Origin: Akkermansia muciniphila
Lineage (GTDB): Bacteria > Verrucomicrobiota > Verrucomicrobiia > Limisphaerales > UBA9464
DNA length: 32,443 bases
Direction: 5' to 3'
NCBI GenBank assembly: GCA_945861075.1
Contig: CAMATE010000003.1
Location: 1 to 32,443, forward strand
A model generated the notes under the pieces. It searched no databases and was not told where the DNA came from. It was given only the letters and a program-made list of their open reading frames with translations. A program made the translations under genes and the position numbers. Positions 1 through 16,130 of this stretch are shown here, piece by piece (the first letter of the stretch is position 1; every line of letters starts with the position of its first letter).

Positions 1-452
1 TACGCACCGATGGAGAGAAACTGCCAGCGGCTGCGGTCAAAGCCCCGCCCAAACTGGCATTGGCTCCATAGGCCACCAGGGCCCAACTCCCGCCTCCCAC
101 CAACGTCAAATCCACCAATGCGCCGTCCACACCGCTCACCTGATCCCACATCCGATATTGGATCGTCGCAGTCCCATTGAAATTGGAGTTTGGAACAAAC
201 CGAACCCGATGCTGTTCATCACTCTTGAGCAGCCGCCCTGAAAGGGAAGTCACCCCGGCCAGTGAACTCCAAACACCGCCGCCGTCAGTCGTATACTGCC
301 AGAGGCCATTGGCCAGATCGACCGATGTCACAGCAATGCCCTTCAAAGCACCTACATCGACATCCGAACCCCCACTGGTCAATGCAGCCACGGACGTGCC
401 GGGGTTTGCTGCCGATCCCACATCTTCGGCAATCGCATCCAGGACGAGACCT
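1..452 (-). repeat. Internal repeat module, copy B (truncated by window edge)
   Basis: This stretch of the giant gene repeats 3442-3893 at a constant offset of 3441 bases, with no insertion or deletion between anchor points (for example ggctccata at 62 and 3503, catcttc at 421 and 3862). The encoded segments share AEDV, GSDVD.GALKGIA, WQYT.DGGG.WSSL, HRVRF.PN, FNGTATIQYR and WDQVSGVD. The module probably continues beyond the left edge, since copy A is followed by further related sequence. Confidence 0.85.
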
Positions 453-3400
453 TGAATGACGGACACGGTGAACTGGCTCAGTTCGGTGTGGTCGTAGACA
501 AAATCACCTTTCGAATCGACGACCAGATAAAGCATCTCGCCAGGCTGCATTTCCACGAGACCGCTTGAGGCCAATGCGACGGAACCACCGCTCACTAAAC
601 TTCCCGAACGCAGGAGCAGGTAACGCGCTGACCCCGCCAAACCCCGCTGGATGAAATAATCAATCCCGTTGGCTGATGAATAGGGCATCCGAAGGGTGAC
701 CCCAAAATTCACCGAAACGGTTTGGTTGGCAGTGTTCTTCCAGCCCACCGCCACCGCTCGAACTGAAGCGTCCGTATTGGCGGGATGGATCACCAACGTC
801 CCCGCAGCGACCGGCGACCGGGCAGAACTCACCCTCTGCACAAAAGGATAGTTATTCAAATGTCCCGAATATCCGTCCCATTGTGGGATGCCGGAAATCA
901 CCTCGTTGCCGCCGGTCTTCCAACTGGTCAACAAGGTCAAACCCGACACGCTGCCTCCCAGGTATTGCCATCGACTGGCGGCAGACTGGAGCGCGGGACC
1001 CTCCACAAAGCCCGTAAATGCATCGTAGGTCGTCGAGATCTCAGAAACCACCGGAGCGTCATTCACCGCATTCACCGTGATGGAAACCGTCGCCACACCA
1101 GAATTCACTGCGCCGTCGTTCACCCGGAAAGTGAAGGAATCACTGCCGTTCATATTCGCATTCGGTGTGTAGGTCAGGTTCGGTGCGATTCCACTCAACA
1201 TCCCCTTCGTCGGCGGCGTCACCACCGCGTAGGTCAATGCTGAACCCTCCACATCCGTGCCCGACAGTGTGATCGGCTTCGCCGTATCTTCATCCGTCGT
1301 CACCGTCTGCGCCGTCGCCACAGGAACATCATTCACCGGGGTGATGGAAACCGACACCGTCGCCACCGAGGAATCCGCTGCACCGTCATTCGCTTTGAAG
1401 GTGAAGGAGTCGCTCCCGTTCGCATTCGCATTCGGCGTATAAGTCAGGTTCGGCGGCGTGCCACTCAAGACGCCCTTTGTCGGCTGCGTCACCACAGCAT
1501 AGGTGAGCGTCGACCCTTCCACATCCGTACCCGCTAACGTGACGAGCTTCGCCGTGTCTTCAAGGGTCGTCACCGTTTGCGCCGTCGCGACTGGCGCGTC
1601 ATTCACCGGGACAAAACGCAGCACTCGCGAAGCCGATACGGTCGAAGTCCCGTCAAACGCGCTGACGGTCAGTGTGCGATCAGAAGAGTTATTGGCAGCC
1701 CCCAAATAGGTCACGCTACCAGCCGTCGCAAAATAGGAGTTCAGATTGGCCACCGAGCCAACGAACGTGCGGGCAATGCTCGAGCCCCCAAGAGTGATAC
1801 CGGTGCCGGGATTTCCGGTGATCACGCCATCCGAAGCCGACAGCGTCACCGTCAGGGAGGCACTGTCCGTATCTTGAATCAGCGGAGATTCGAAGATGAC
1901 GTTCCCAGCCACATCTTCCGTCAACATGGATGCTGAGGTGGGGCCTCGGACATACACTTCAAACTTCAATGAGCGATTCAAACCCGTTGAGTTCTGGCAG
2001 CAACCAATGTAGTCGCCGGCCGACCAATTAACTCGGTCCATTCCCAAGCCACCGCTGACATCGTTGGACCCCTCGTTGCCGTTGGGAAAAAGACCGCCTC
2101 CGTTTTCGTTCCAACCAAAACCGAATCGAACACGGTTGTTGCCGACAGTGCTCACGTAGTTGAAGCCAAAAAAACGCACGTCGGTCTGGGTGGAAAACAC
2201 CCCGGCTCCGGCCGCCCGATAGGGAGTCGTCGCAACCGCGTCTCGGATGAAGATCTTCTCTTCCCCAGCGAAGAGTTCTCGCAGAGTTTTACCGGTGTAA
2301 TTCCCTTGAGTTGGCCTTCCAGTATAAGCGGTCGTGTTGGCCGGCGTCGGCATGGATTCCTTCCAAACAAATCCATAAGATTGTCCCGTGATCGCCCCAC
2401 CGGCCGTGGCCTCGGGAAAGATCACCAGGATTTCGCTGGCCGGCATGGAGTTGAAGACTTCGAACTTGGCGTCTTCGTTAAATGTGTCATTCCGACGAGT
2501 GGCAGCGGTGTTGAGGGTGTTTGCCGTCGTCCAGTAGCTTGAAGAATAATTGAAGGTGGAGCCGGTGTTGGCGCCTTTCATGGCCAACATCCACCCTCCC
2601 CCGAGGGCATCGTTCATCAAGCAATAAACCGGAACGGATGTGCCGTTGAAAAAGAGTGAGTAAACCCCGTCAGCAGTGGCTCCTGTTGAGGCTTTCAGGG
2701 TCGATGCATTCAAGATCGCTGTGTCCGAGCCTGTTATCGTCACTTGAGGCGCGTCGTTGACGGGGGTGACGGTGAGGGTCGCGGTCGCGGCGTTGATCGA
2801 GTAGGAAGCGCTCGCATCGATGTCGAGATACGTGGTTCCAATATTGACCAACGGGTAGTGTCCAGAGCCGCCGACTTGGGACCCTGCCAACGCCAAGACC
2901 TGAGCAGCACTCAACCGCGCCCAGAGGGCCATGGAGGAAGGCACATAGCTGTTCTGGGCTCCTCCGGCGCCTCCCATCACGAGCCCTGTTTTCTTTTCGT
3001 TCCCCGTTCCATGATCGAGGTAGAGGGCCTTGAAAGTCTGATTATCCGGAAACTGTCCGTAATCGAGTTGCGGGTTGCTCCCATTGTTTACGACCAACCC
3101 ATACACCCCACCGTAACCGGCCCCGAAACTCTTGTTTCTCAGGTACATCTGAGCGGGCATGTCCGGTGTTCCGATCAGTGTTCGCACTGTGACTAATGAT
3201 TGGTCTGGATGCGTGCTGCCAACCGCGAATGAATTCAGGAGGTTGCCTTGGGAGAATATCGGAGGGCTCGTGGCCGATCCGTCAAAGCTCATGCCCGACG
3301 CATTGGGCAGAGCAAATGCGACAGCATGTTTGTAGGAAGCGATACCCCCCACCGGAAAGCCTCCACCGGCAACGGTCCAAGACATGGCCAACTCGGAACT

Positions 3401-6400
3401 GCTCTTCAGGAGACTGAGGGCTGGCAGCACCGCGGAACCTGAACGCACCACCGATGAAAAGGTTCCCGTGGCGGCATTCAGGAACCCTCCCAGGCTGGCA
3501 TCGGCTCCATAAGCCACCAAAGCCCACGCTCGCCCGTCGATCGATGTCACATCCACCAAGGAGGCATCGACTCCACTGACCTGATCCCAGGCGCGGTATT
3601 GAATGGTGGCTGTGCCATTGAAATCAGGGTTCGGCAAAAACCGCACACGATGAAGTTCATCCCCTTTGAGCAATCGAGCCGAAGCCGTGCTTACGCCGGA
3701 CAACGAACTCCAGTTCCCCCCCCCGTCGATGGTGTATTGCCAAGAACCGTTGCTAGCATCAATCGACGTGATCGCGATGCCCTTGAGGGCACCGGCGTCA
3801 ACGTCTGAACCGGCGTTCGCAAGCTCCAAAACCGCCGTACCCGGATTATCCGCCAGAGCCACATCTTCCGCGATCGAGGTCAACGCCGCGTTTCCGGCCA
3901 CCGGGGAGTCGTTCACCGGAGCCAATGTCATGGTGACCGTAGCCTCAGCCGACCAAGCAGATCCATCGAACGCCTTCACGCTGAAGGTCTTGGCTCCATA
4001 TTCATTGGCCGCTGGCGTATAAGTCAAAGAACCCAACTGGGCCACCGGGATCACTTGGGCGGCACTTACCGCGGAGCCGGCCAAACTCAAGACTCCCGTC
4101 TCTGGCAGGGATACGATCTGGATGCTGCTCATCGCAACCCCTTCCGGGTCGGTGTAGAACGGTGAAAATATGCCGGATGAGAAGGTGAGAGAGGTGTCTT
4201 CGGTTCCGGAAACACCCACGGCAGCAAGGGTCGGTGGCATTTGAACGGTGAACCATGAACTGAAAGCCGAGCTGTACAGCGAAGCAAACGAGAAGTCGGC
4301 CCGGATCGAGTAGTACTGCCCACCAACAAATGTCAGCCTTGAATAGGAACTGGTAGCTACGTTCGACAAGGCGGACTGAATCTCGAATTGTGCCCACGTG
4401 GAGTCAGCCCCGATCAAGGCGGCGGCACCGCTGTAGATGTCTAGCAACTGGATCGTCGTTACCTGATTCGGATTGATTCCCGATCCGGCGAATTGCCGCA
4501 TATCAATTGCCAGCAGGCTCCGTCCCGCGCCTCGACCATTTGGAATCACGTAGGCCCACTCCACCGCACCTCCAGTGGACGAAGCCTTGTAGCCGCTGCT
4601 GAACCTTAGCCGGTAAGGATTGTTGAGGACACCCGTCATCGTTAGGTCAGCGAAAGTAGCAAAGCCGTTGATGGCATTGACGGTCAAAGCACCACTCAAG
4701 GCACCGCCAGTGCCGGAATCGATGGACACCGTGACAGCTCCTGTGCTGGCAGTCCGGTTCCCCTGGCTATCACGAATTTCAACTACCGGCGGCGTGGCCA
4801 TCAGCACACCGCTGACCACGCCTGATGGCTGCGTCGCCACGGCTAGTTGGGTCGACAACGGCACATCGATCTGGACGGAAAGAGCTCCGCTAGCCATCGC
4901 TACCCCGTCCGACACAGTGAGTGTGTAGACCTCCGATGCAGAGATTAGGAGTGGGTTGATACCTGCCGCCGAGGGCGCAAACGAGTAGGCTCCGGTCGCG
5001 GTGTTGAGGGTCAGGGTTCCAAAGGAGCCCGTCTTGGCCACTTGGCCTGCGGTGGCGGTCGCCGCGCCGCCTTGGATTCCATACACCAGCGTGGTGTTCG
5101 GATCGGGGTCGGTTCCGCTGACAGAACCAGAAATCGCCGGAAAAACCGTCTGGGTGGCAGAACCCGTGACAATGAGCGAGCGAGCCGATGACGTTGCGCT
5201 GTAGCGGACAATGACCACTCCCGATCCCCCCGCCCCACCCAATCCCTCCGGATCACCACCACCGCCACCACCGCCGGAGTTCGGCGTCCCGGCCGCACCC
5301 TGAGCCCAGTTTGAACGAGCGCCCGCTCCGCCTCCACCTGCACCTCCATTACCCCCGAACGTGGTCGGAAATCCCGTATTGTTGTTGGCACCACCACCAC
5401 CACCTCCGCCGTAGAAGATTGAACTCCCTGAAATGGAATGGCTGACACCCGAGCCGCCGTTACCACCGGGTGAGGAAGCGGTGGCGTAGCCATAACCATC
5501 GGCTCCCCAAAGTCCACGAGTGCCCACTCCACCTGCGCCACCACCGCCTCCGCCGGCAACATAACCATCGTTGGCCGCACCATCGGCTCCCCGAAACCCT
5601 TGGGTCGCCGCTCCGGAGGCCGCGGAGGTATCGCCGCCGGTGCCACCACTCGACGCACCAGATAAACCCGCTCCCCGAAATGCGCCACCGCCACCGCCAC
5701 CGAACGCCATCAACGAACCAAAGCTCGAGGAGCCTCCGTTAGCGCCGGCGAGAACCGTGCCGTTCAACGTTCCCCCGGCTCCTCCCGCTCCGACAGTGAC
5801 CGTGACCGATTGAGCGGCCGTCACCGAGAAACTGTTTTGATAAACAACTCCACCGGCGCCGCCACCGCCACTGCCACCACCCCCGCCGCTGCCTACCACC
5901 AAAACCTCCACAGCCCCGGATACCGCCGGCACAAAACTCCCACTCTGCCGAAAGGTATGAATGGTTGAGCCGCCGATTCGAGTCACCTCGCCCCCAGCAC
6001 TTTCTGCGACGAACCCTAAAGTCGGGGGCACGTTGGACATAGAAGCATGGACGAGGACGGGATCTTCGAGGGTGGTGTAAAAGCGCAGCTCGCCAATGGT
6101 TCCCCGAAACCAGCGATTCGAGGTTTCCCGTTCTCGGCCAAACCGAATCAAGTTGGCGACAATCCCCGATCCTCCATCGCTCACCAAGCTGCCTTTCAAG
6201 ACGCCATCGACATAGAACCGGGCTGTCTGGTCACCCACGTCTGAGTCCGACCAGGTCAGCATCATCGTATGAATCGCGCCATCGACTACATTCACCGCAG
6301 ACGGGGTCGAGATCGCTCCATTGAAAAACGCACGAGCCAAGCCGTCGGTGCCGATGGTTAGGCCGAAATCATTCGGGGCGCCGGGGGCTTCCGCGTTGAT

Positions 6401-6868
6401 GGGCCCCGGATATTGCCAGTGATTGCCGTCACTGCCGGTTGCACCTTGGGTGGCTTTGAAGAGTGCGACAATCGTGACGGTTTTCTGTCCGGCGATCGGG
6501 TTGTTGGCCGACGTGACTTCGAAGTAGTCATCGACGCCGTCGAAAACGATTCCCCCGGAGGAGGCACTGCCACCAAATTGGCTGGTGGCTTTGATCGGAC
6601 TTCCATAGGCAGCCGCGATCTTTCCTCCGACCCGGTCCACCCAGTGAGCGCTTCCGCCCGCCCAATCATCTGCAACCCAGCGCGCCACCGGATCGCCTGC
6701 GGTGAGTCGGATCGCGCCCTGAAACAGAATCAGAGCCGGAACCAAGACCGAAAAGATCAGCCGGCGAACGAGGCGAAGCACCCAAATTGTCCACGCGCAC
6801 GCACGATGCGTCTCCCCCTTCGGTCGGGAAGAAGGGACACCCATGGGTTTGAACGCGCAGGCAGACAT
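1..6868 (-). CDS. Giant secreted modular protein (LamG, glycine-rich, cadherin/VCBS-like, fibrinogen-like modules), partial
   Basis: One open frame without a stop runs from ATG at 6868 (alternative ATG 6844) off the left edge, at least 2289 residues. The frame was checked at several points and stays constant. An N-terminal hydrophobic stretch (LIFSVLVPALILF) ending near LTAG looks like a signal peptide. Modules in order, by approximate residue: LamG/concanavalin-like 60-263; glycine-rich 307-550; VCBS-like 557-663; Big-like 670-750; cadherin-like 875-985; repeat module A 992-1143; fibrinogen-like GGGW domain 1383-1635; two 90-residue VNDAP...TYTPNAN repeats 1757-1936; repeat module B from 2139. 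Such architectures belong to bacterial surface or secreted adhesins. That role is inference, because the C-terminal anchor or sorting signal lies outside the window. No clear Shine-Dalgarno marks either start, so the exact N-terminus is uncertain. Confidence 0.85.
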   Translation of the reverse strand, partial: MSACAFKPMGVPSSRPKGETHRACAWTIWVLRLVRRLIFSVLVPALILFQGAIRLTAGDPVARWVADDWAGGSAHWVDRVGGKIAAAYGSPIKATSQFGGSASSGGIVFDGVDDYFEVTSANNPIAGQKTVTIVALFKATQGATGSDGNHWQYPGPINAEAPGAPNDFGLTIGTDGLARAFFNGAISTPSAVNVVDGAIHTMMLTWSDSDVGDQTARFYVDGVLKGSLVSDGGSGIVANLIRFGRERETSNRWFRGTIGELRFYTTLEDPVLVHASMSNVPPTLGFVAESAGGEVTRIGGSTIHTFRQSGSFVPAVSGAVEVLVVGSGGGGGSGGGGAGGVVYQNSFSVTAAQSVTVTVGAGGAGGTLNGTVLAGANGGSSSFGSLMAFGGGGGGAFRGAGLSGASSGGTGGDTSAASGAATQGFRGADGAANDGYVAGGGGGGAGGVGTRGLWGADGYGYATASSPGGNGGSGVSHSISGSSIFYGGGGGGGANNNTGFPTTFGGNGGAGGGGAGARSNWAQGAAGTPNSGGGGGGGDPEGLGGAGGSGVVIVRYSATSSARSLIVTGSATQTVFPAISGSVSGTDPDPNTTLVYGIQGGAATATAGQVAKTGSFGTLTLNTATGAYSFAPSAAGINPLLISASEVYTLTVSDGVAMASGALSVQIDVPLSTQLAVATQPSGVVSGVLMATPPVVEIRDSQGNRTASTGAVTVSIDSGTGGALSGALTVNAINGFATFADLTMTGVLNNPYRLRFSSGYKASSTGGAVEWAYVIPNGRGAGRSLLAIDMRQFAGSGINPNQVTTIQLLDIYSGAAALIGADSTWAQFEIQSALSNVATSSYSRLTFVGGQYYSIRADFSFASLYSSAFSSWFTVQMPPTLAAVGVSGTEDTSLTFSSGIFSPFYTDPEGVAMSSIQIVSLPETGVLSLAGSAVSAAQVIPVAQLGSLTYTPAANEYGAKTFSVKAFDGSAWSAEATVTMTLAPVNDSPVAGNAALTSIAEDVALADNPGTAVLELANAGSDVDAGALKGIAITSIDASNGSWQYTIDGGGNWSSLSGVSTASARLLKGDELHRVRFLPNPDFNGTATIQYRAWDQVSGVDASLVDVTSIDGRAWALVAYGADASLGGFLNAATGTFSSVVRSGSAVLPALSLLKSSSELAMSWTVAGGGFPVGGIASYKHAVAFALPNASGMSFDGSATSPPIFSQGNLLNSFAVGSTHPDQSLVTVRTLIGTPDMPAQMYLRNKSFGAGYGGVYGLVVNNGSNPQLDYGQFPDNQTFKALYLDHGTGNEKKTGLVMGGAGGAQNSYVPSSMALWARLSAAQVLALAGSQVGGSGHYPLVNIGTTYLDIDASASYSINAATATLTVTPVNDAPQVTITGSDTAILNASTLKASTGATADGVYSLFFNGTSVPVYCLMNDALGGGWMLAMKGANTGSTFNYSSSYWTTANTLNTAATRRNDTFNEDAKFEVFNSMPASEILVIFPEATAGGAITGQSYGFVWKESMPTPANTTAYTGRPTQGNYTGKTLRELFAGEEKIFIRDAVATTPYRAAGAGVFSTQTDVRFFGFNYVSTVGNNRVRFGFGWNENGGGLFPNGNEGSNDVSGGLGMDRVNWSAGDYIGCCQNSTGLNRSLKFEVYVRGPTSASMLTEDVAGNVIFESPLIQDTDSASLTVTLSASDGVITGNPGTGITLGGSSIARTFVGSVANLNSYFATAGSVTYLGAANNSSDRTLTVSAFDGTSTVSASRVLRFVPVNDAPVATAQTVTTLEDTAKLVTLAGTDVEGSTLTYAVVTQPTKGVLSGTPPNLTYTPNANANGSDSFTFKANDGAADSSVATVSVSITPVNDVPVATAQTVTTDEDTAKPITLSGTDVEGSALTYAVVTPPTKGMLSGIAPNLTYTPNANMNGSDSFTFRVNDGAVNSGVATVSITVNAVNDAPVVSEISTTYDAFTGFVEGPALQSAASRWQYLGGSVSGLTLLTSWKTGGNEVISGIPQWDGYSGHLNNYPFVQRVSSARSPVAAGTLVIHPANTDASVRAVAVGWKNTANQTVSVNFGVTLRMPYSSANGIDYFIQRGLAGSARYLLLRSGSLVSGGSVALASSGLVEMQPGEMLYLVVDSKGDFVYDHTELSQFTVSVIQGLVLDAIAEDVGSAANPGTSVAALTSGGSDVDVGALKGIAVTSVDLANGLWQYTTDGGGVWSSLAGVTSLSGRLLKSDEQHRVRFVPNSNFNGTATIQYRMWDQVSGVDGALVDLTLVGGGSWALVAYGANASLGGALTAAAGSFSPSVR
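1061..1600 (-). repeat. Two tandem 270-bp (90-residue) cadherin/Big-like repeats
   Basis: The marker cattcacc recurs at 1060, 1330 and 1600, exactly 270 bases apart. Each unit encodes VNDxPVATAQTVTT, then EDTAK, AGTDVEG/SGTDVEG, LTYAVVT.PTKG.LSG, PNLTYTPNAN and NGSDSFTF. These are the hallmarks of bacterial Ig/cadherin-like repeats of adhesins. The nucleotide sequences are visibly close, so the duplication is fairly recent or kept homogeneous. Confidence 0.9.
1965..2720 (-). other. Fibrinogen-like (GGGWT-type) domain within the giant protein
   Basis: Residues about 1383-1635 hold an ILNASTLK...DGVYSL start, the core VYCLMNDALGGGWMLAMKG, a long polar middle and a C-terminal NRSLKFEVYVRG. The YC-x(6-8)-GGGW core is the signature of fibrinogen-related/intelectin-like domains found in some bacterial surface proteins. 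The usual aspartate of YCDM is leucine here (YCLM) and the usual T/L after GGGW is M. A CC pair (IGCCQNSTG) near the end could form a disulfide. Ligand binding (sugar or protein) is inferred from the family only. Confidence 0.65.
3442..3893 (-). repeat. Internal repeat module, copy A
   Basis: Partner of the module at 1-452, in register at an offset of 3441 bases (1147 codons). It encodes a beta-rich extracellular segment beginning near SIAEDVAL and reaching SWQYTIDGGG, then FNGTATIQYRAWDQ and a WALVAYGA.ASLGG stretch. Conserved framing with scattered substitutions, many at third positions, points to duplication followed by selection at the protein level. Confidence 0.85.
5220..5950 (-). repeat. 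Glycine-rich low-complexity coding segment
   Basis: The forward strand is full of ccaccaccgcc-type runs, which read on the minus strand as GGG/GGA/GGT/GGC glycine codons. Residues about 307-550 contain EVLVVGSGGGGGSGGGG, GAGGAGG, FGGGGGGAFRG, AGGGGGGAGG and VVIVRY. The EVLVVGSGGGG opening and the VVIVRYS close match the glycine-rich domain seen in secreted and tail-type proteins. Short glycine-codon repeats such as those near 5258-5280 and 5389-5410 could slip during replication. Confidence 0.8.
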
Positions 6869-8844: not shown

Positions 8845-9624
8845 TCAGGGGATTTTAATCCCGTAGAAGCACTGCCACTGACTTTGGCTCGATCCCAATG
8901 TCACGTTGCGGGACGAGATCCATTGGACATGGCCGTCCTCGAAGAGAAAGTTGCCTCCATCGGGAATCCCACGCTGGCCGGCATGGTTGGCTGTCTTGGT
9001 GAGGCGTCCGTTCTCGACCATCATCCACTTGATCCCGGGGTTCCACATGTTGGTGGAGTGGGCCCCATGTCCCTGAAGGCGGTCGATGAGGATGGGAGCG
9101 GCGGAAAACTCGCCACCCATCTTCTTGCGGTAATGCCAGTCACCCAAACCGTCGGAGTTGTAATCCCAGGCACCATCCACGCGGCCTGGGAGAAAGAAAT
9201 ACCCAATGAAAACAGGCCGGCTGCTGTTCGCTCCGTAGCTCCAGGCGTCGGCCTGTCGGTTCCATTGATCGGTTGGGCAAAAGAGAACGTGATTGGCCGC
9301 CTTGCGGTCGTTCCGCGACTTTGGGGCCGCATTCTTCATCAGGTACTTGTCCGTGAAGTTCCGGGCACTGGATCCCAGCCAACTCAGCCCGGTTCCGTCA
9401 GTGTTGTCGGGAAACCGGTCCTCATTGTCATTGGCATAGAGGTTCACCGCGATCCCCCATTGCCGCTGATTGCTGCTGCATAAGGTCTTGATAGCCGTGG
9501 ATCGAGCCCGAGCCAGCGCCGGCAGGAGCATACCCGCCAAGATAGCGATGATGGCGATCACCACCAGCAGCTCAATGAGCGTGAAGGCGGTTGATCGTGA
9601 GGCTGAAATCCGGCGCGGGTTCAT
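8845..9624 (-). CDS. Type II secretion-like pseudopilin (prepilin-type N-terminal methylation domain)
   Basis: A protein of 259 residues. The N-terminus is a short positive leader ([13 protein letters not shown]) followed by [19 protein letters not shown], the prepilin peptidase recognition and assembly helix. Residue -1 is Ala rather than the usual Gly. The body has the [10 protein letters not shown] continuation and an [11 protein letters not shown] segment. Near the C-terminus are [15 protein letters not shown] and an upstream HAGQRG, typical of the large verrucomicrobial/planctomycetal family of single pseudopilin-like proteins. Mature protein would sit in the inner membrane with a periplasmic globular domain. 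No other secretion genes are adjacent, so its partner apparatus is unknown. Confidence 0.88.
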
Positions 9625-12598: not shown

Positions 12599-13306
12599 TC
12601 AACCGCCCAGGTAGGCACTACGGACTTCAGGACTGTCACGGAGAGCCGTCGAACTGTCGGCCAGAAGGACACGGCCGGTTTCCAGCACGTAGCCAAATGA
12701 GCTCACCTCCAAGGCCAAGTGAGCGTTCTGCTCTACGAGCAAAATAGGCAGCGACCGCTCACGGTTGAGTTCCACCAGACGGGCGAAGATTTCCTTCACC
12801 AAGAGTGGAGCAATGCCCAAGGACGGCTCATCGAGCATCAAGAATCGCGGACGACTCATGAGCGCGCGCCCAATGGCCAACATTTGCTGCTCTCCTCCGG
12901 AAAGGGTTCCAGCAGCCTGATCGCGGCGTTCCTTCAGCCGCGGGAACATGCCGAAGACATGGTCGAGTTCCGCGGTGATCCATTGGTTATCCCGCTGCAA
13001 GTACGCCCCCATGCGGAGGTTCTCCATCACCGTGAGGTTGGCGAAGACCAACCGACCCTCCGGAGAATGGGCCAGACCCCTCCGCACGATTTCATGGGGC
13101 GCCATCCCCGTGATGTCCTGACCGTCAAAAAGGATCCGGCCCGAACTGGGTTTCACCATGCCCGAAATGGCCCGAAGCGTCGTGGTTTTGCCCGCACCGT
13201 TGCCACCAATGAGGGTCACGATACCCCGGGCCGGCACGCTCAACGAAATACCGTGGAGGGCGGTGATGGCACCGTATTGGACGCTCAGGTTTTGGACTTC
13301 TAGCAC
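12599..13306 (-). CDS. livF: Branched-chain amino acid-type ABC transporter ATP-binding protein
   Basis: A protein of 235 residues, the normal LivF length. Walker A is GGNGAGKTT (residues 34-42), the signature LSGGEQQ (135-141) and Walker B FLMLDEP (155-161). The LivF-type opening MLEVQNLSVQYG and the segment GLAHSPEGRLVFANLTVMENL distinguish it from LivG. It is the last gene of livHMGF, 32 bp after livG. It would energise uptake through LivH/LivM on the cytoplasmic face. The substrate could be amino acids, urea or other small compounds, because this family is broad and the binding protein is not seen here. Confidence 0.92.
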   Translation of the reverse strand: MLEVQNLSVQYGAITALHGISLSVPARGIVTLIGGNGAGKTTTLRAISGMVKPSSGRILFDGQDITGMAPHEIVRRGLAHSPEGRLVFANLTVMENLRMGAYLQRDNQWITAELDHVFGMFPRLKERRDQAAGTLSGGEQQMLAIGRALMSRPRFLMLDEPSLGIAPLLVKEIFARLVELNRERSLPILLVEQNAHLALEVSSFGYVLETGRVLLADSSTALRDSPEVRSAYLGG

Positions 13307-13338
13307 GGCGGAAAAAGGAGAGGGTTTGGCTCTGGTTT

Positions 13339-14103
13339 TCAGTCACCCAAGTAGGCGGCGATGACTTTGGGATCCGCACGAATCTCCGCCGGCGATCCCT
13401 CGGCGATTTTCCGGCCGTATTCCAGAACATGAATGCGCTCGCAAATACCCATGACCACCTTCATGTCGTGCTCGACGAGCAACACCGCCAGGCGGAAGCG
13501 GTCTCGCACGAAGCGGATCAAGCGCATCAACTCGTCTTTTTCGGATGGGTTCATTCCGGCGGCAGGTTCATCGAGCAAGAGCAGTCGCGGCCCCGTGGCC
13601 AAGGCCCGAACAATTTCCAGACGACGCTGGTCACCATACGAGAGGCTCTTGGCCGGAGCATCCTGGACACGCTCCAAATTGAAGATACCCAGCAACTCGC
13701 GAGTGCGGTCCTGCAAGTCGGCTTCCTCCGCATGAAAGCGGCGACTGCGCAACCAGGACTCCCAAGTCCGGTGCTCCAGATGTCGGTGAAAGGCCACCCG
13801 AACATTGTCTGAGACCGACAAGCTCGGAAAGAGCCGGATGTTCTGAAAGGTCCGGGCGATCCCACGTTCGGTGAGGTGGAATGGCTTCGCACCGGCGGTG
13901 TCCGTGCCCGCAAACTCAATGCGCCCTTCGGTGGGCTGATACACGCCGGTGATGAGGTTAAAGAGGGTGGTCTTGCCGGCACCGTTGGGACCGATGAGCC
14001 CGGCCAACTCCCCTTCCCTCACGTCGGCCGTGACCGAAGAGACCGCCGTCAGGCCGCCAAAGCGGATGGTCACGTCGGTCAGTTGCAGCAAGGAAGTGCT
14101 CAT
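13339..14103 (-). CDS. livG: Branched-chain amino acid-type ABC transporter ATP-binding protein
   Basis: A protein of 254 residues with Walker A GPNGAGKTT (38-46), the LivG-typical GIARTFQNIRLFPSLSV segment (81-97), signature LSYGDQR (154-160) and Walker B LLLLDEPAAGMNP (from 174). The C-terminal tail ILVEYGRKIAEGSP-like region (here HVLEYGRKIAEGSP) is the LivG/BCA ATPase tail. Its start overlaps the end of livM by 4 bp (14100-14103, ATGA), which suggests translational coupling. Confidence 0.93.
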   Translation of the reverse strand: MSTSLLQLTDVTIRFGGLTAVSSVTADVREGELAGLIGPNGAGKTTLFNLITGVYQPTEGRIEFAGTDTAGAKPFHLTERGIARTFQNIRLFPSLSVSDNVRVAFHRHLEHRTWESWLRSRRFHAEEADLQDRTRELLGIFNLERVQDAPAKSLSYGDQRRLEIVRALATGPRLLLLDEPAAGMNPSEKDELMRLIRFVRDRFRLAVLLVEHDMKVVMGICERIHVLEYGRKIAEGSPAEIRADPKVIAAYLGD

Positions 14104-15098
14104 GTGCGCTGCCTCCGACGTTCACCCCGATGGAACAGGCCCTGTGGGCGCATGAGCATCAAGAGGATCAAGAGCAGTGAGTAGAGGATCATCCGCATGT
14201 CCTTGATCCACTCGAGCGACCAGGCCGCTCCTCCAAAAGGATTGGGAACCGAGCGACTGCCCAATTCGCGAAGACCCTCCGGCAGCAAGGTCAACAAGAT
14301 GGCCGCGAAGACAACGCCTGCATGGCGACCCATGCCTCCGAGGATGACCATCACCACGATTTCGATGCTCTTTTCGAAGGAGAATCCGCCCGGGTTGAGA
14401 TACCCCTTGAGGTGCGCGTACAAGCCGCCCGCGATTCCCGCAAAGAAGGATCCGATGCCGAAGGCCGTGATCTTGTAGCGGGTTGTGTCCAGGCCCATGG
14501 CCTCGGCCGCCACTTCATCATCGGCCACCGCCAGAAATCCGCGCCCATGGGTGGAATTGAGCAACGCCCACACCGTGTACACGGTCAGCGCCGCTGATCC
14601 GAAGGTCCAAAAGAGATTGGTGTGGGTTGGCACGCCGGTCAGGCCGCGGGCTCCACCCACCGCATCCACATTCTGGAGAATGACACGAATGATCTCGCCG
14701 AAGCCCAGCGTCACGATGGCCAGATAGTCGCCCTTGAGCCGCAGCGAGGGAGCCCCCACCGCAAGGCCCGCCGCCGCAGCGAGCAATCCGCCCACCAGGA
14801 GGCTGAACGGAAAAAAGACCCATTGCAGGAGAGCCGGGCTCCAACCCAATCGCGGCGCCACCACCGTGGACAACATGGCCGAGGTGTAGGCACCCAAGGC
14901 CATGAAACCGGCGTGACCGAGAGAAAATTGGCCCGTGAAGCCATTGATGAGATTGAGGCTGGAGGCCAGCACCACGCTGACACCCACGCCCATCACCACG
15001 TCCAGAAAGTAGGGGTCGATCGAGCCGGAAACCGCCGAGGCCACTCCTGCCAGAATCAAGGCTGCCAGCAACCAGCGTTGGGCGATGGGAAACGCCAT
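14100..15098 (-). CDS. livM: Branched-chain amino acid-type ABC transporter permease LivM
   Basis: A protein of 332 residues, polytopic with about nine hydrophobic segments. The family hallmark NLINGFTGQFSLGHAGFMAL-type segment is present near residue 50, followed by GAYTSAM. Other family features are LRLKGDYLAIVTLGFGEI and GGMGRHAGVVFAA. The C-terminus is basic (RGERRRQR). It forms the inner-membrane channel with LivH. It starts 2 bp after livH and overlaps livG by 4 bp. The length fits stand-alone LivM without the extra N-terminal domain of E. coli LivM. Confidence 0.92.
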   Translation of the reverse strand: MAFPIAQRWLLAALILAGVASAVSGSIDPYFLDVVMGVGVSVVLASSLNLINGFTGQFSLGHAGFMALGAYTSAMLSTVVAPRLGWSPALLQWVFFPFSLLVGGLLAAAAGLAVGAPSLRLKGDYLAIVTLGFGEIIRVILQNVDAVGGARGLTGVPTHTNLFWTFGSAALTVYTVWALLNSTHGRGFLAVADDEVAAEAMGLDTTRYKITAFGIGSFFAGIAGGLYAHLKGYLNPGGFSFEKSIEIVVMVILGGMGRHAGVVFAAILLTLLPEGLRELGSRSVPNPFGGAAWSLEWIKDMRMILYSLLLILLMLMRPQGLFHRGERRRQRT

Positions 15099-15100
15099 GC

Positions 15101-16006
15101 TCAGACCTTCTCCACCTTGAGTTTGCCCAGCAGACCGGCGGGCCGGAACAGCAGGATGGCGATGAGGATGCCGAAGGCGATGGCATCGCGGAAGGTCGAG
15201 AGCCGCGTTCCCGACACGAAGGTCTCCACCAAACCAATGAGCAACCCACCCAGTGCCGCTCCCGGCAGGTTGCCGATGCCGCCCAGCACCGCAGCCACGA
15301 AGGCCTTGAGGCCCGGCAAGGTGCCCATCAGCGGATCGATGCTGGGGTAGTTCATCGCATAGAGAACCCCGCCCGCTCCGGCCAAGGCTGAACCCAGTCC
15401 AAAGGTGAAGGAAATGATCCGGTCATTGTTGATGCCCACCAACGAGGCGGCTGTGGCATTGAAGGACAAGGCACGCATGGCCGTGCCGATGCGTGTGTGA
15501 TGCACGATCCAGTAGAGCAACCCCAGAAGACTCAGGGCGACTGCCAACACCACCAACTGATGGGTCGAGACGGTCAAGGTGCCGAAGTGGAGCTGCTGGG
15601 AGGGAAAGAGAGCCGGAAAGGCCTTGGGGTTAGGCCCGAAACCGAGCCGAGAGTTCTGCGCCACGTTCTGGATGAGCAACGAAACGCCGATGGCGGTGAT
15701 GAGCACCGTAAGGGTGGATCGCTGACGCAACGGCTTGTACGCGAGCTTTTCAATGACCACCCCCAAGACGGCGCACACCGACATCGACAACAACAAGGCC
15801 GCCAACCCACCGCCGATCGACTGGGTGGGCAACCCGAGTTTCTCTACCGAATACCAGGCGACAAACGCTCCCAACATGAACACATCGCTGTGGGCGAAAT
15901 TGATGAAGCGGAGCACGCCATAAACCATGGTGTACCCCAGGGCGATGAGGGCGTATATAGCCCCCAGGAGCACTCCATTGAGCAGTTGTTGCAGGAACTC
16001 GGTCAT
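15101..16006 (-). CDS. livH: Branched-chain amino acid-type ABC transporter permease LivH
   Basis: A protein of 301 residues from ATG 16006, chosen because MTEFLQQLLNGVLLGAIYAL is the usual LivH N-terminus. An in-frame ATG at 16084 would add 26 residues unlike the family. The hallmark ALGYTMVYGVLRFINFAHSD follows, then GIGNLPGAALGGLLIGLVE near the C-terminus. It is first in the livHMGF operon and 124 bp downstream of the aminopropyltransferase-like gene, a gap large enough for its own promoter. No periplasmic binding-protein gene lies beside it, although livJ/K-type genes usually do. Confidence 0.92.
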   Translation of the reverse strand: MTEFLQQLLNGVLLGAIYALIALGYTMVYGVLRFINFAHSDVFMLGAFVAWYSVEKLGLPTQSIGGGLAALLLSMSVCAVLGVVIEKLAYKPLRQRSTLTVLITAIGVSLLIQNVAQNSRLGFGPNPKAFPALFPSQQLHFGTLTVSTHQLVVLAVALSLLGLLYWIVHHTRIGTAMRALSFNATAASLVGINNDRIISFTFGLGSALAGAGGVLYAMNYPSIDPLMGTLPGLKAFVAAVLGGIGNLPGAALGGLLIGLVETFVSGTRLSTFRDAIAFGILIAILLFRPAGLLGKLKVEKV

Positions 16007-16130
16007 CGGGTTCCGCGGGCCCCGCCACGCGGACAAGCCTTCAAGAAAACCCCAGTCGCGCCCAATGTCGAGCGCGGGTGACAAAGACGGCGCAGGAGCG
16101 GATGAGACGCTGGCAGGCTCGACCTCATGG

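What the first reader, a model, noticed from the sequence alone, without database searches (positions are those of the whole stretch)
1..6868. Giant modular secreted protein, at least 2289 residues, cut by the window edge
A single uninterrupted minus-strand frame combines LamG-like, glycine-rich, VCBS/cadherin/Big-like and fibrinogen-like modules. It would be easy to miss, because it has no stop in the window and its opposite strand carries many short shadow frames. The combination could be an adhesin or matrix protein. How it is anchored is unknown because the C-terminus is outside.
Basis: partly seen in the sequence, partly recalled or inferred. Interest (0 to 1): 0.55.

Follow-up and report, generated by a model that had tools for sequence, protein, structure and literature searches.

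The report
Giant adhesin with cyanophage-type tip domain
An uncultured Verrucomicrobiota bacterium encodes a very long secreted protein, probably used for gripping surfaces, and one of its building blocks is the same domain that forms the end of proteins encoded beside the tail-fibre genes of viruses of marine cyanobacteria.

Summary
The frame is real: 2..6868 (-), 2289 aa, no stop, Ka/Ks 0.15-0.17 against three orthologues. The window is a whole contig of a metagenome-assembled genome, so the gene is cut by the assembly. Orthologues run to 3013-3573 aa and are also cut. LamG, Gly_rich_2 and cadherin/Big modules pass curated cut-offs. The fibrinogen-like part (residues 1386-1641) hits NCBIfam GGGWT_bact below its cut-off (E 3e-5). 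Full length it belongs to a virus family: PHROG 1325 (E 4e-22), 59 IMG/VR contigs (33-45% identity), five T4-like cyanophages. In 64 of 64 of these frames it is the extreme C-terminus. In the isolates it lies among tail-fibre/baseplate genes; in five other cyanophages checked the N-terminal stalk and the start of the domain are kept while the rest diverges. In the bacterium it is internal, and against G016 the best conserved module (89.5%). Best reading: a secreted giant adhesin with a cyanophage-tip-type, lectin-like head. Fold, ligand, anchoring and direction of transfer are not shown (AU p 0.25); the C-terminus is inferred from paralogous contigs.

The parts
2..6868 (-). Giant ORF, at least 2289 aa, no stop before the contig end
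   Evidence: Ka/Ks; orthologues L026, L063, L064
6695..6868 (-). Residues 1-58: N-terminal hydrophobic stretch (res 37-55, KD mean 2.07), probable Sec signal peptide with a long n-region
   Evidence: hydropathy only; inference
6014..6694 (-). Residues 59-285: LamG / ConA-like lectin fold (Laminin_G_3); not recognisable at this place in G016 (27.5% over 189 aligned residues) and outside the aligned region in G014
5201..5935 (-). Residues 312-556: Gly_rich_2 domain
3569..4231 (-). Residues 880-1100: cadherin/Big-like repeats
2879..3571 (-). Residues 1100-1330: module with a GGxAWALVAYG-like motif, FReD-like by eye only; no family hit, no viral relative found
1946..2713 (-). Residues 1386-1641: cyanophage tip-type (PHROG 1325 / GGGWT-like) domain
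1040..1606 (-). Residues 1755-1943: two tandem-95 / Big_9 repeats; collinear similarity to orthologue G010 ends here
470..1036 (-). Residues 1945-2133: module of unknown kind, matched in G014, not matched at this place in G010 or G016
2..469 (-). Residues 2134-2289: cadherin-like repeat and the start of a further WALVAYG-type module, cut by the contig end
7165..8814 (+). Divergent neighbour, PQQ_2 beta-propeller protein, 549 aa; an ORF of 530-604 aa lies in the same divergent place in all three orthologous contigs

Best explanation
The window holds the N-terminal 2289 residues of a secreted modular giant adhesin (orthologues at least 3573 aa; 4000-5000 aa is likely if it shares the C-terminal half seen on paralogous contigs, an inference). 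Cadherin/Big/tandem-95 repeats act as a stalk that carries several binding heads: an N-terminal LamG, a Gly-rich domain and, at residues 1386-1641, a lectin-like domain of the kind found at the C-terminus of T4-like cyanophage proteins encoded among the tail-fibre genes. SHOWN: one intact conserved frame, module content, homology of the 256-residue domain to the phage proteins, its C-terminal place in them, its occurrence there behind two unlike N-terminal parts, and its strong conservation in the bacterium. INFERRED: export, that the phage proteins are tip adhesins, and that the domain binds a surface glycan of other microbes or particles. UNKNOWN: fold, ligand, anchoring, direction of transfer.
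For: Purifying selection. A phage-only profile of 31 representatives hits the giant at residues 1386-1641 with 221 bits and hits the three orthologues; none of 200 shuffles of P0001 and none of the other ten proteins in the set passed E 10. PHROG 1325 E 3.7e-22. 66 of 97 candidate IMG/VR stretches confirmed, 59 of the 66 over more than 200 residues; in 64 of 64 such cases (59 IMG/VR, 5 isolate phages; one per locus, near-copies included) the domain ends within 3 residues of the stop, in stop-to-stop frames of 236-1195 codons, a few cut by contig ends. All 10 isolate records found with the window domain and all 34 found with a phage copy are cyanophages. Tail fibre, baseplate wedge or 'tail fiber assembly' genes lie close by in all five isolates. 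Modularity: in P-TIM40 the domain (285-529) follows an N-terminal part unlike that of the other four isolates and matching tail-fibre families. Variability: the S-H9-1 protein matches 159 cyanophage records, only 8 over at least 80%; in five of them checked (Syn19, P-SSM4, P-SSM3, S-CAM4, S-RIM12) the N-terminal part and about the first 60 residues of the domain are kept, the rest is unrecognisable in four and distant in S-RIM12 (59 bits). In the bacterium it is the most conserved module against G016 (89.5%; the eight others 27.5-84.1%); Ka/Ks of residues 1425-1655 is 0.065-0.087 against 0.15-0.17 for the long stretches. Precedent: the 1.5-MDa Marinomonas adhesin with a lectin domain that binds diatoms (PMC8092209, abstract and passages read).
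Against: No binding, localisation or expression data. Anchor and C-terminus not seen in this gene. AlphaFold on residues 1083-1650 with four sequences failed (pLDDT 28), so a lectin/FReD fold is not shown; profile matches to solved intelectin-type lectins are marginal (E 0.047 and 0.073) and cover only the YC..GGGW region. Against G010 two other modules are slightly more conserved (Gly_rich 98.4%, residues 1642-1754 98.2%, domain 97.7%). The isolates are marine cyanophages; the habitat of the MAGs was not established.
Confidence: 0.57

Rival explanations
1. It is a structural extracellular-matrix or sheath protein; the phage-type domain serves as a capping, trimerising or cross-linking module and not as a receptor-binding head.
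For: Repeats and a Gly-rich domain are typical of structural surface proteins; in phages the C-terminal position would also suit a capping function, and the start of the domain is kept across other cyanophages.
Against: Most of the domain varies strongly between cyanophages while the N-terminal part is kept, which suits specificity better than assembly; in the giant it is internal, so it caps nothing.
Confidence: 0.24
2. The domain is a general bacterial GGGWT fibrinogen-like domain taken up by cyanophages from bacteria; the likeness to phages says nothing about what the giant binds.
For: The NCBIfam GGGWT_bact model partly fits; a Verrucomicrobiota genome of another family (G255) has two distant GGGWT domains (E 6e-6 and 2e-5); the AU test does not reject the phage rows as one clade apart from the bacterial ones (p 0.253).
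Against: Within what was searched, full-length relatives were found only in viruses and in 4 genomes of one genus: 4 of 50 family genomes, 1 of 387 phylum genomes, the window's own, 0 of 72,556 plasmid records. Other bacterial phyla were not searched. The bacterial rows fall inside a group with 13 phage rows (support 93/98, short of the tool's star).
Confidence: 0.35
3. It is a giant contact weapon for attacking or degrading other cells, as proposed for giant genes of Omnitrophota.
For: Giant genes in the PVC superphylum have been read that way (PMC12057145, passages read; it cites West-Roberts et al. 2023, not read).
Against: No catalytic domain above cut-off in the 2289 residues or in the two orthologues scanned, P0002 and P0006, which add RCC1 and Ig modules.
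Confidence: 0.08
4. The frame or the embedded phage-type domain is an assembly chimera.
For: MAG contig; the window and the three orthologous contigs all break inside the gene.
Against: The domain sits in the same architecture in four genomes, with mostly synonymous divergence; the last 1 kb, which differs from G010, is matched in G014.
Confidence: 0.02

Closest known systems
PHROG 1325 / C-terminal domain of T4-like cyanophage proteins encoded among the tail-fibre genes (S-H9-1 PQC11_gp075, ACG-2014h S-MbCM7_084 and _086, P-HM2 PHM2_102, P-TIM40 AU107_gp043, S-H9-2 PQC10_gp022)
   Same: 256-residue domain end to end, shared motifs YC..M..GGGWMLA.K, YGFN, RWGFGWN, SAGD..CCQ.TG.NR..R.EIYVR
   Different: Internal in a giant bacterial protein instead of the C-terminus of a phage protein; 33-45% identity
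NCBIfam NF040941 GGGWT_bact (fibrinogen-like YCDxxxxGGGW)
   Same: N-terminal 40 residues of the domain
   Different: Score 23.9, below the cut-off 30; the model covers only 46 positions
Intelectins / FReD lectins (lamprey serum lectin 7e1e, XEEL 4wmo, tenascin)
   Same: YCxM..GGGW motif region
   Different: E 0.047-1.2; no similarity found past the motif region
Giant RTX adhesin of Marinomonas primoryensis (1.5 MDa, PA14 lectin domain)
   Same: Works alike in principle: a very large adhesin with a lectin head
   Different: Different lectin domain; no C-terminal secretion signal seen here
Giant genes of PVC bacteria (Omnitrophota, Planctomycetota)
   Same: Size class and mosaic surface modules
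   Different: Much smaller than the largest of them; carries a phage-type tip domain

Membership tests
PHROG 1325 / cyanophage tip domain | Significant profile match over most of the domain | tested here: met
   E 3.7e-22, residues 4-218 of 259 to profile 106-299 of 334; own phage-only profile 221 bits over positions 3-232 of 232
PHROG 1325 / cyanophage tip domain | Domain forms the C-terminus of a phage protein encoded in the tail region | tested here: not met
   Internal in the giant; no phage gene among 20 neighbouring ORFs by Pfam. It is therefore a domain homologue, not a phage gene
NCBIfam GGGWT_bact | Curated score of at least 30 | tested here: not met
   23.9 bits, E 3.1e-5
Fibrinogen_C / FReD fold | Pfam match or FReD fold | tested here: inconclusive
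   No Pfam match; model unusable
Laminin_G_3 | Pfam gathering score | tested here: met
   30.6 against 27.6
Gly_rich_2 | Pfam gathering score | tested here: met
   69.5 against 24.3
Tandem-95 / Big_9 / cadherin-like repeat proteins | Curated score | tested here: met
   180.8 against 90; 142.1 against 23.6
PEP-CTERM, T9SS or RTX/T1SS-secreted adhesin | C-terminal sorting signal | not testable with these tools
   C-terminus outside the window and the three orthologous contigs; the related C-terminus P0013 has no hydrophobic tail

The most novel reading that the evidence does not exclude
A free-living Verrucomicrobiota lineage acquired the receptor-binding tip of a T4-like cyanophage and built it into a giant surface adhesin with which it grips picocyanobacterial cells or their released glycans: a phage host-recognition module reused for cell-to-cell attachment.
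Probability: 0.2. Interest if true: 0.82.

Novelty: new variant of a known kind. Interest (0 to 1): 0.57.

Why it matters
It gives a probable role (tip adhesin) to an unnamed cyanophage protein family (PHROG 1325), ties it to a bacterial giant protein, and offers a direct test of what these uncultured Verrucomicrobiota attach to: one 256-residue domain can be expressed and tried on cyanobacteria and glycan arrays. Lectin heads shared by phage tails and bacterial adhesins would make phage host range and bacterial attachment readable from one another.

Tried and rejected
Full-length Pfam, NCBIfam and PDB scans missed LamG and the GGGWT domain; segment scans found them. My first segment of the fibrinogen-like domain began too late (residue 1425) and missed the motif; searches used the full domain. 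Searches (4 of 50 genomes; 2 of 387: the window's genome and one weak partial match with stops) therefore rest on the shorter piece; one search repeated the phylum search with a full-domain profile (2 of 387: the window's genome and G255, partial).

A clean swap of the phage C-terminus for unrelated domains, which I first read out, did not hold: one search shows that the part shared with Syn19, P-SSM4, P-SSM3 and S-CAM4 includes about the first 55-65 residues of the domain, and that S-RIM12 carries a distant version of it. I now claim divergence, not replacement, except for P-TIM40, where the N-terminal part differs.

Structure of residues 1083-1650: pLDDT 28, discarded. Structure of the C-terminal module of the paralogous contigs: pLDDT 54.6; the Foldseek rows shown have TM-scores under 0.4, not interpreted.

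Misassembly as the reason why the last 1 kb differs from G010: rejected, because the module is matched in G014. Viral relatives of residues 1100-1330 and of 1945-2133: none found. LamG: four weak viral matches, 24-39% identity, not followed. Direction of transfer: the tree is suggestive, the AU test is not (p 0.253). The genome-contig scan was made with residues 1-636, so relatives of the phage-type domain in other bacterial phyla were not sought. Papers: the listings (no paper) showed no title or abstract start on this sharing; PMC3909814 names fibrinogen-like genes in marine phage host-recognition islands (passages). A search for the lake behind one MAG label gave nothing usable; passages of PMC9878933 were seen and not used.
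Full report
OBSERVATION. The minus-strand frame 2..6868 starts with ATG and has 2289 codons without a stop. The window is the complete contig C3 of a 3.3-Mb, 340-contig genome (86.39% complete, 7.02% contaminated). Record titles of near relatives: one says Verrucomicrobiota, one Verrucomicrobium, one Akkermansia. The gene has orthologues in 4 of 50 genomes of its family, the window's own included, all four among the 19 of its genus (searched with residues 1425-1655): G010 (contig length equal to JARXAF010000190.1; 92% identity over residues 1-1946), G014 and G016. Ka/Ks is 0.15-0.17. It is a real gene.

WHY IT IS CUT. Orthologous frames run 3210 (G010), 3013 (G014) and 3573 aa (G016) and all reach a contig end. 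G010 and G016 stop inside an RCC1 plus immunoglobulin-like stretch; G014 stops earlier but seems to continue on contig C64 (91% identity of that piece to G016). This stretch is shared with a second giant (G000:C285, G010:C120, G014:C110; 55% to the C285 frame and 70% to the C120 frame; near identical in places by eye). G010:C120 has an exact 141-bp end overlap, equal to the k in the assembler's contig name, i.e. probably a loop in the graph. Copies of a 660-aa C-terminal module (ending NPTTW) are followed either by a prepilin-like gene, a xylose-isomerase-like gene and the second giant (G010:C120, G014:C110, G016:C187) or by another giant frame (G016:C45, G014:C53, G011:C65). The simplest reading, inferred, is a tandem of two giants with a common C-terminal half. 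That module was not found in G000 (0 matches), so the window gene's own C-terminus remains unseen.

ARCHITECTURE. Residues 1-58 probable signal peptide (hydropathy); LamG 59-285; Gly_rich_2 312-556; VCBS/cadherin/Big-like repeats in 566-1100; residues 1100-1330 with a GGxAWALVAYG-like motif, no family; 1386-1641 GGGWT-like; tandem-95 repeats 1755-1943; an unnamed module 1945-2133; a cadherin-like repeat and the start of another WALVAYG module to 2289. Modules differ between species: in G016 the N-terminal LamG is not recognisable (27.5% over 189 aligned residues), in G014 it lies outside the aligned region, while LamG relatives at 51-70% sit on other large frames of the genus; the module 1945-2133 is not matched at that place in G010 or G016 but is in G014.

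THE PHAGE-TYPE DOMAIN. Residues 1386-1641 hit GGGWT_bact below cut-off. Of 97 candidate IMG/VR stretches 66 encode a relative; 59 of these match over more than 200 residues; seven (L151, L168-L173) are partial. Among 50,697 phage records 10 match (five phages, each under two accessions), all T4-like cyanophages of Synechococcus or Prochlorococcus; a phage copy as query finds 34, all cyanophages by name. In 64 of 64 viral cases with such a match (one per locus; near-identical contigs included; stop-to-stop frames) the domain ends within 3 residues of the stop. In the five isolates the gene directly follows a giant tail fibre or baseplate wedge gene (S-H9-1, ACG-2014h), or is separated from one by two (S-H9-2) or five genes (P-HM2), or lies between two 'tail fiber assembly' genes (P-TIM40).

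HOW THE PHAGE PROTEIN VARIES. The S-H9-1 protein (323 aa; domain from residue 84) as query gives 159 cyanophage records, only 8 over at least 80%; of the 40 rows listed 24 end at residue 133-144. I checked five of them: Syn19, P-SSM4, P-SSM3 and S-CAM4 keep the N-terminal part and the first 55-65 residues of the domain (GVYWI..YC..GGW), but the rest is not recognised by the phage profile beyond that region; S-RIM12 carries a distant version (59 bits over positions 1-212). In P-TIM40 the domain follows a different N-terminal part that matches tail-fibre families. So the C-terminal domain is the variable part on a kept base, and in one phage sits on another base. This suits a receptor-binding tip (established knowledge of modular tail fibres), but for these phages, whose proteins are annotated hypothetical, it is inference.

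SPECIFICITY AND CONSTRAINT. A phage-only profile finds the domain in the four orthologous giants, in none of 200 shuffles and in none of ten other proteins. In the bacterium the domain is 97.7% identical to G010 and 89.5% to G016; against G016 the eight other modules compared are at 27.5-84.1%, but against G010 Gly_rich (98.4%) and residues 1642-1754 (98.2%) are slightly higher.

ORIGIN. In a tree of 39 rows the four bacterial domains form one long branch inside a group with 13 phage rows (93/98, not starred), with two distant G255 GGGWT domains as outgroup. The AU test does not reject all phage rows being one clade (p 0.253). No relative in 72,556 plasmids; in 387 phylum genomes only the window's own and the partial G255 domains. 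Other bacterial phyla were not searched. Direction is open.

MECHANISM. Most likely a secreted adhesin: repeats as a stalk, LamG, Gly-rich and phage-type domains as heads. Shown: gene, modules, homology, constraint. Inferred: secretion, glycan binding. The lectin idea rests on the YCxM..GGGW region, which gives only marginal matches to intelectin-type lectins (E 0.047 and 0.073). A bacterial precedent for a lectin-bearing giant adhesin that binds microalgae is the Marinomonas 1.5-MDa protein (PMC8092209, abstract and passages). Marine phage hypervariable islands contain fibrinogen-like genes read as host recognition (3 of 390 genes, PMC3909814, passages). Giant surface proteins are known in the PVC superphylum (PMC12057145 and PMC11573180, passages).

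VERDICT. Giant adhesins as such are known; the domain shared with cyanophages is the new element.

Noticed in passing
L072:4782-6761 (-); also L102, L101, L100, L105, L096, L103, L104, L095, L092, L086: 660-aa C-terminal module (motifs LxPGWNAVxLxV, NPFxHxYHPDHDNL) without a Pfam family, in 8 of 19 genus genomes (alignment A4; model pLDDT 54.6).
   Followed up: partly
L072 (G010:C120): Contig whose ends overlap by exactly 141 bp, hence probably circular in the assembly graph; either a tandem-repeat loop or a real 9.9-kb circle.
   Followed up: partly
L022:2-5899; L098 with L106; L100 with L107: Further giant frames of 1965 (cut), 4175 and 4072 aa; P0009 has no Pfam hit, the first 2575 aa of the G016 frame have LamG and Big_9; they are clustered with the giants.
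   Followed up: partly
L023:1443-8963 (-), L062:4861-9729 (-), L024:2-2017 (+), L027:7338-11975 (+): Four other large proteins of the genus end in a similar signature, F(Y/W)RL followed closely by a terminal P, unlike the NPTTW end of the giants studied here.
   Followed up: no
window 8845-9624 (-) and L072:3914-4840 (-): Prepilin-like genes (N_methyl) stand near both the window giant and the C-terminus on the paralogous contig.
   Followed up: no
L060:1-4005 (-): Second giant in the own genome with a C-type lectin domain and RCC1 repeats.
   Followed up: no
L188-L192 (Syn19, P-SSM4, S-RIM12, S-CAM4, P-SSM3): A GGW-type C-terminal domain with a kept start and a strongly diverged remainder occurs beyond PHROG 1325 in cyanophages.
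   Followed up: partly
L028: Record title says Akkermansia muciniphila, but its contig length equals that of G016:C82, a genome placed in the window's genus; the label looks doubtful.
   Followed up: no
window 12599-16084 (-): Branched-chain amino-acid ABC transporter genes (two ATPases, two permeases); ordinary.
   Followed up: no
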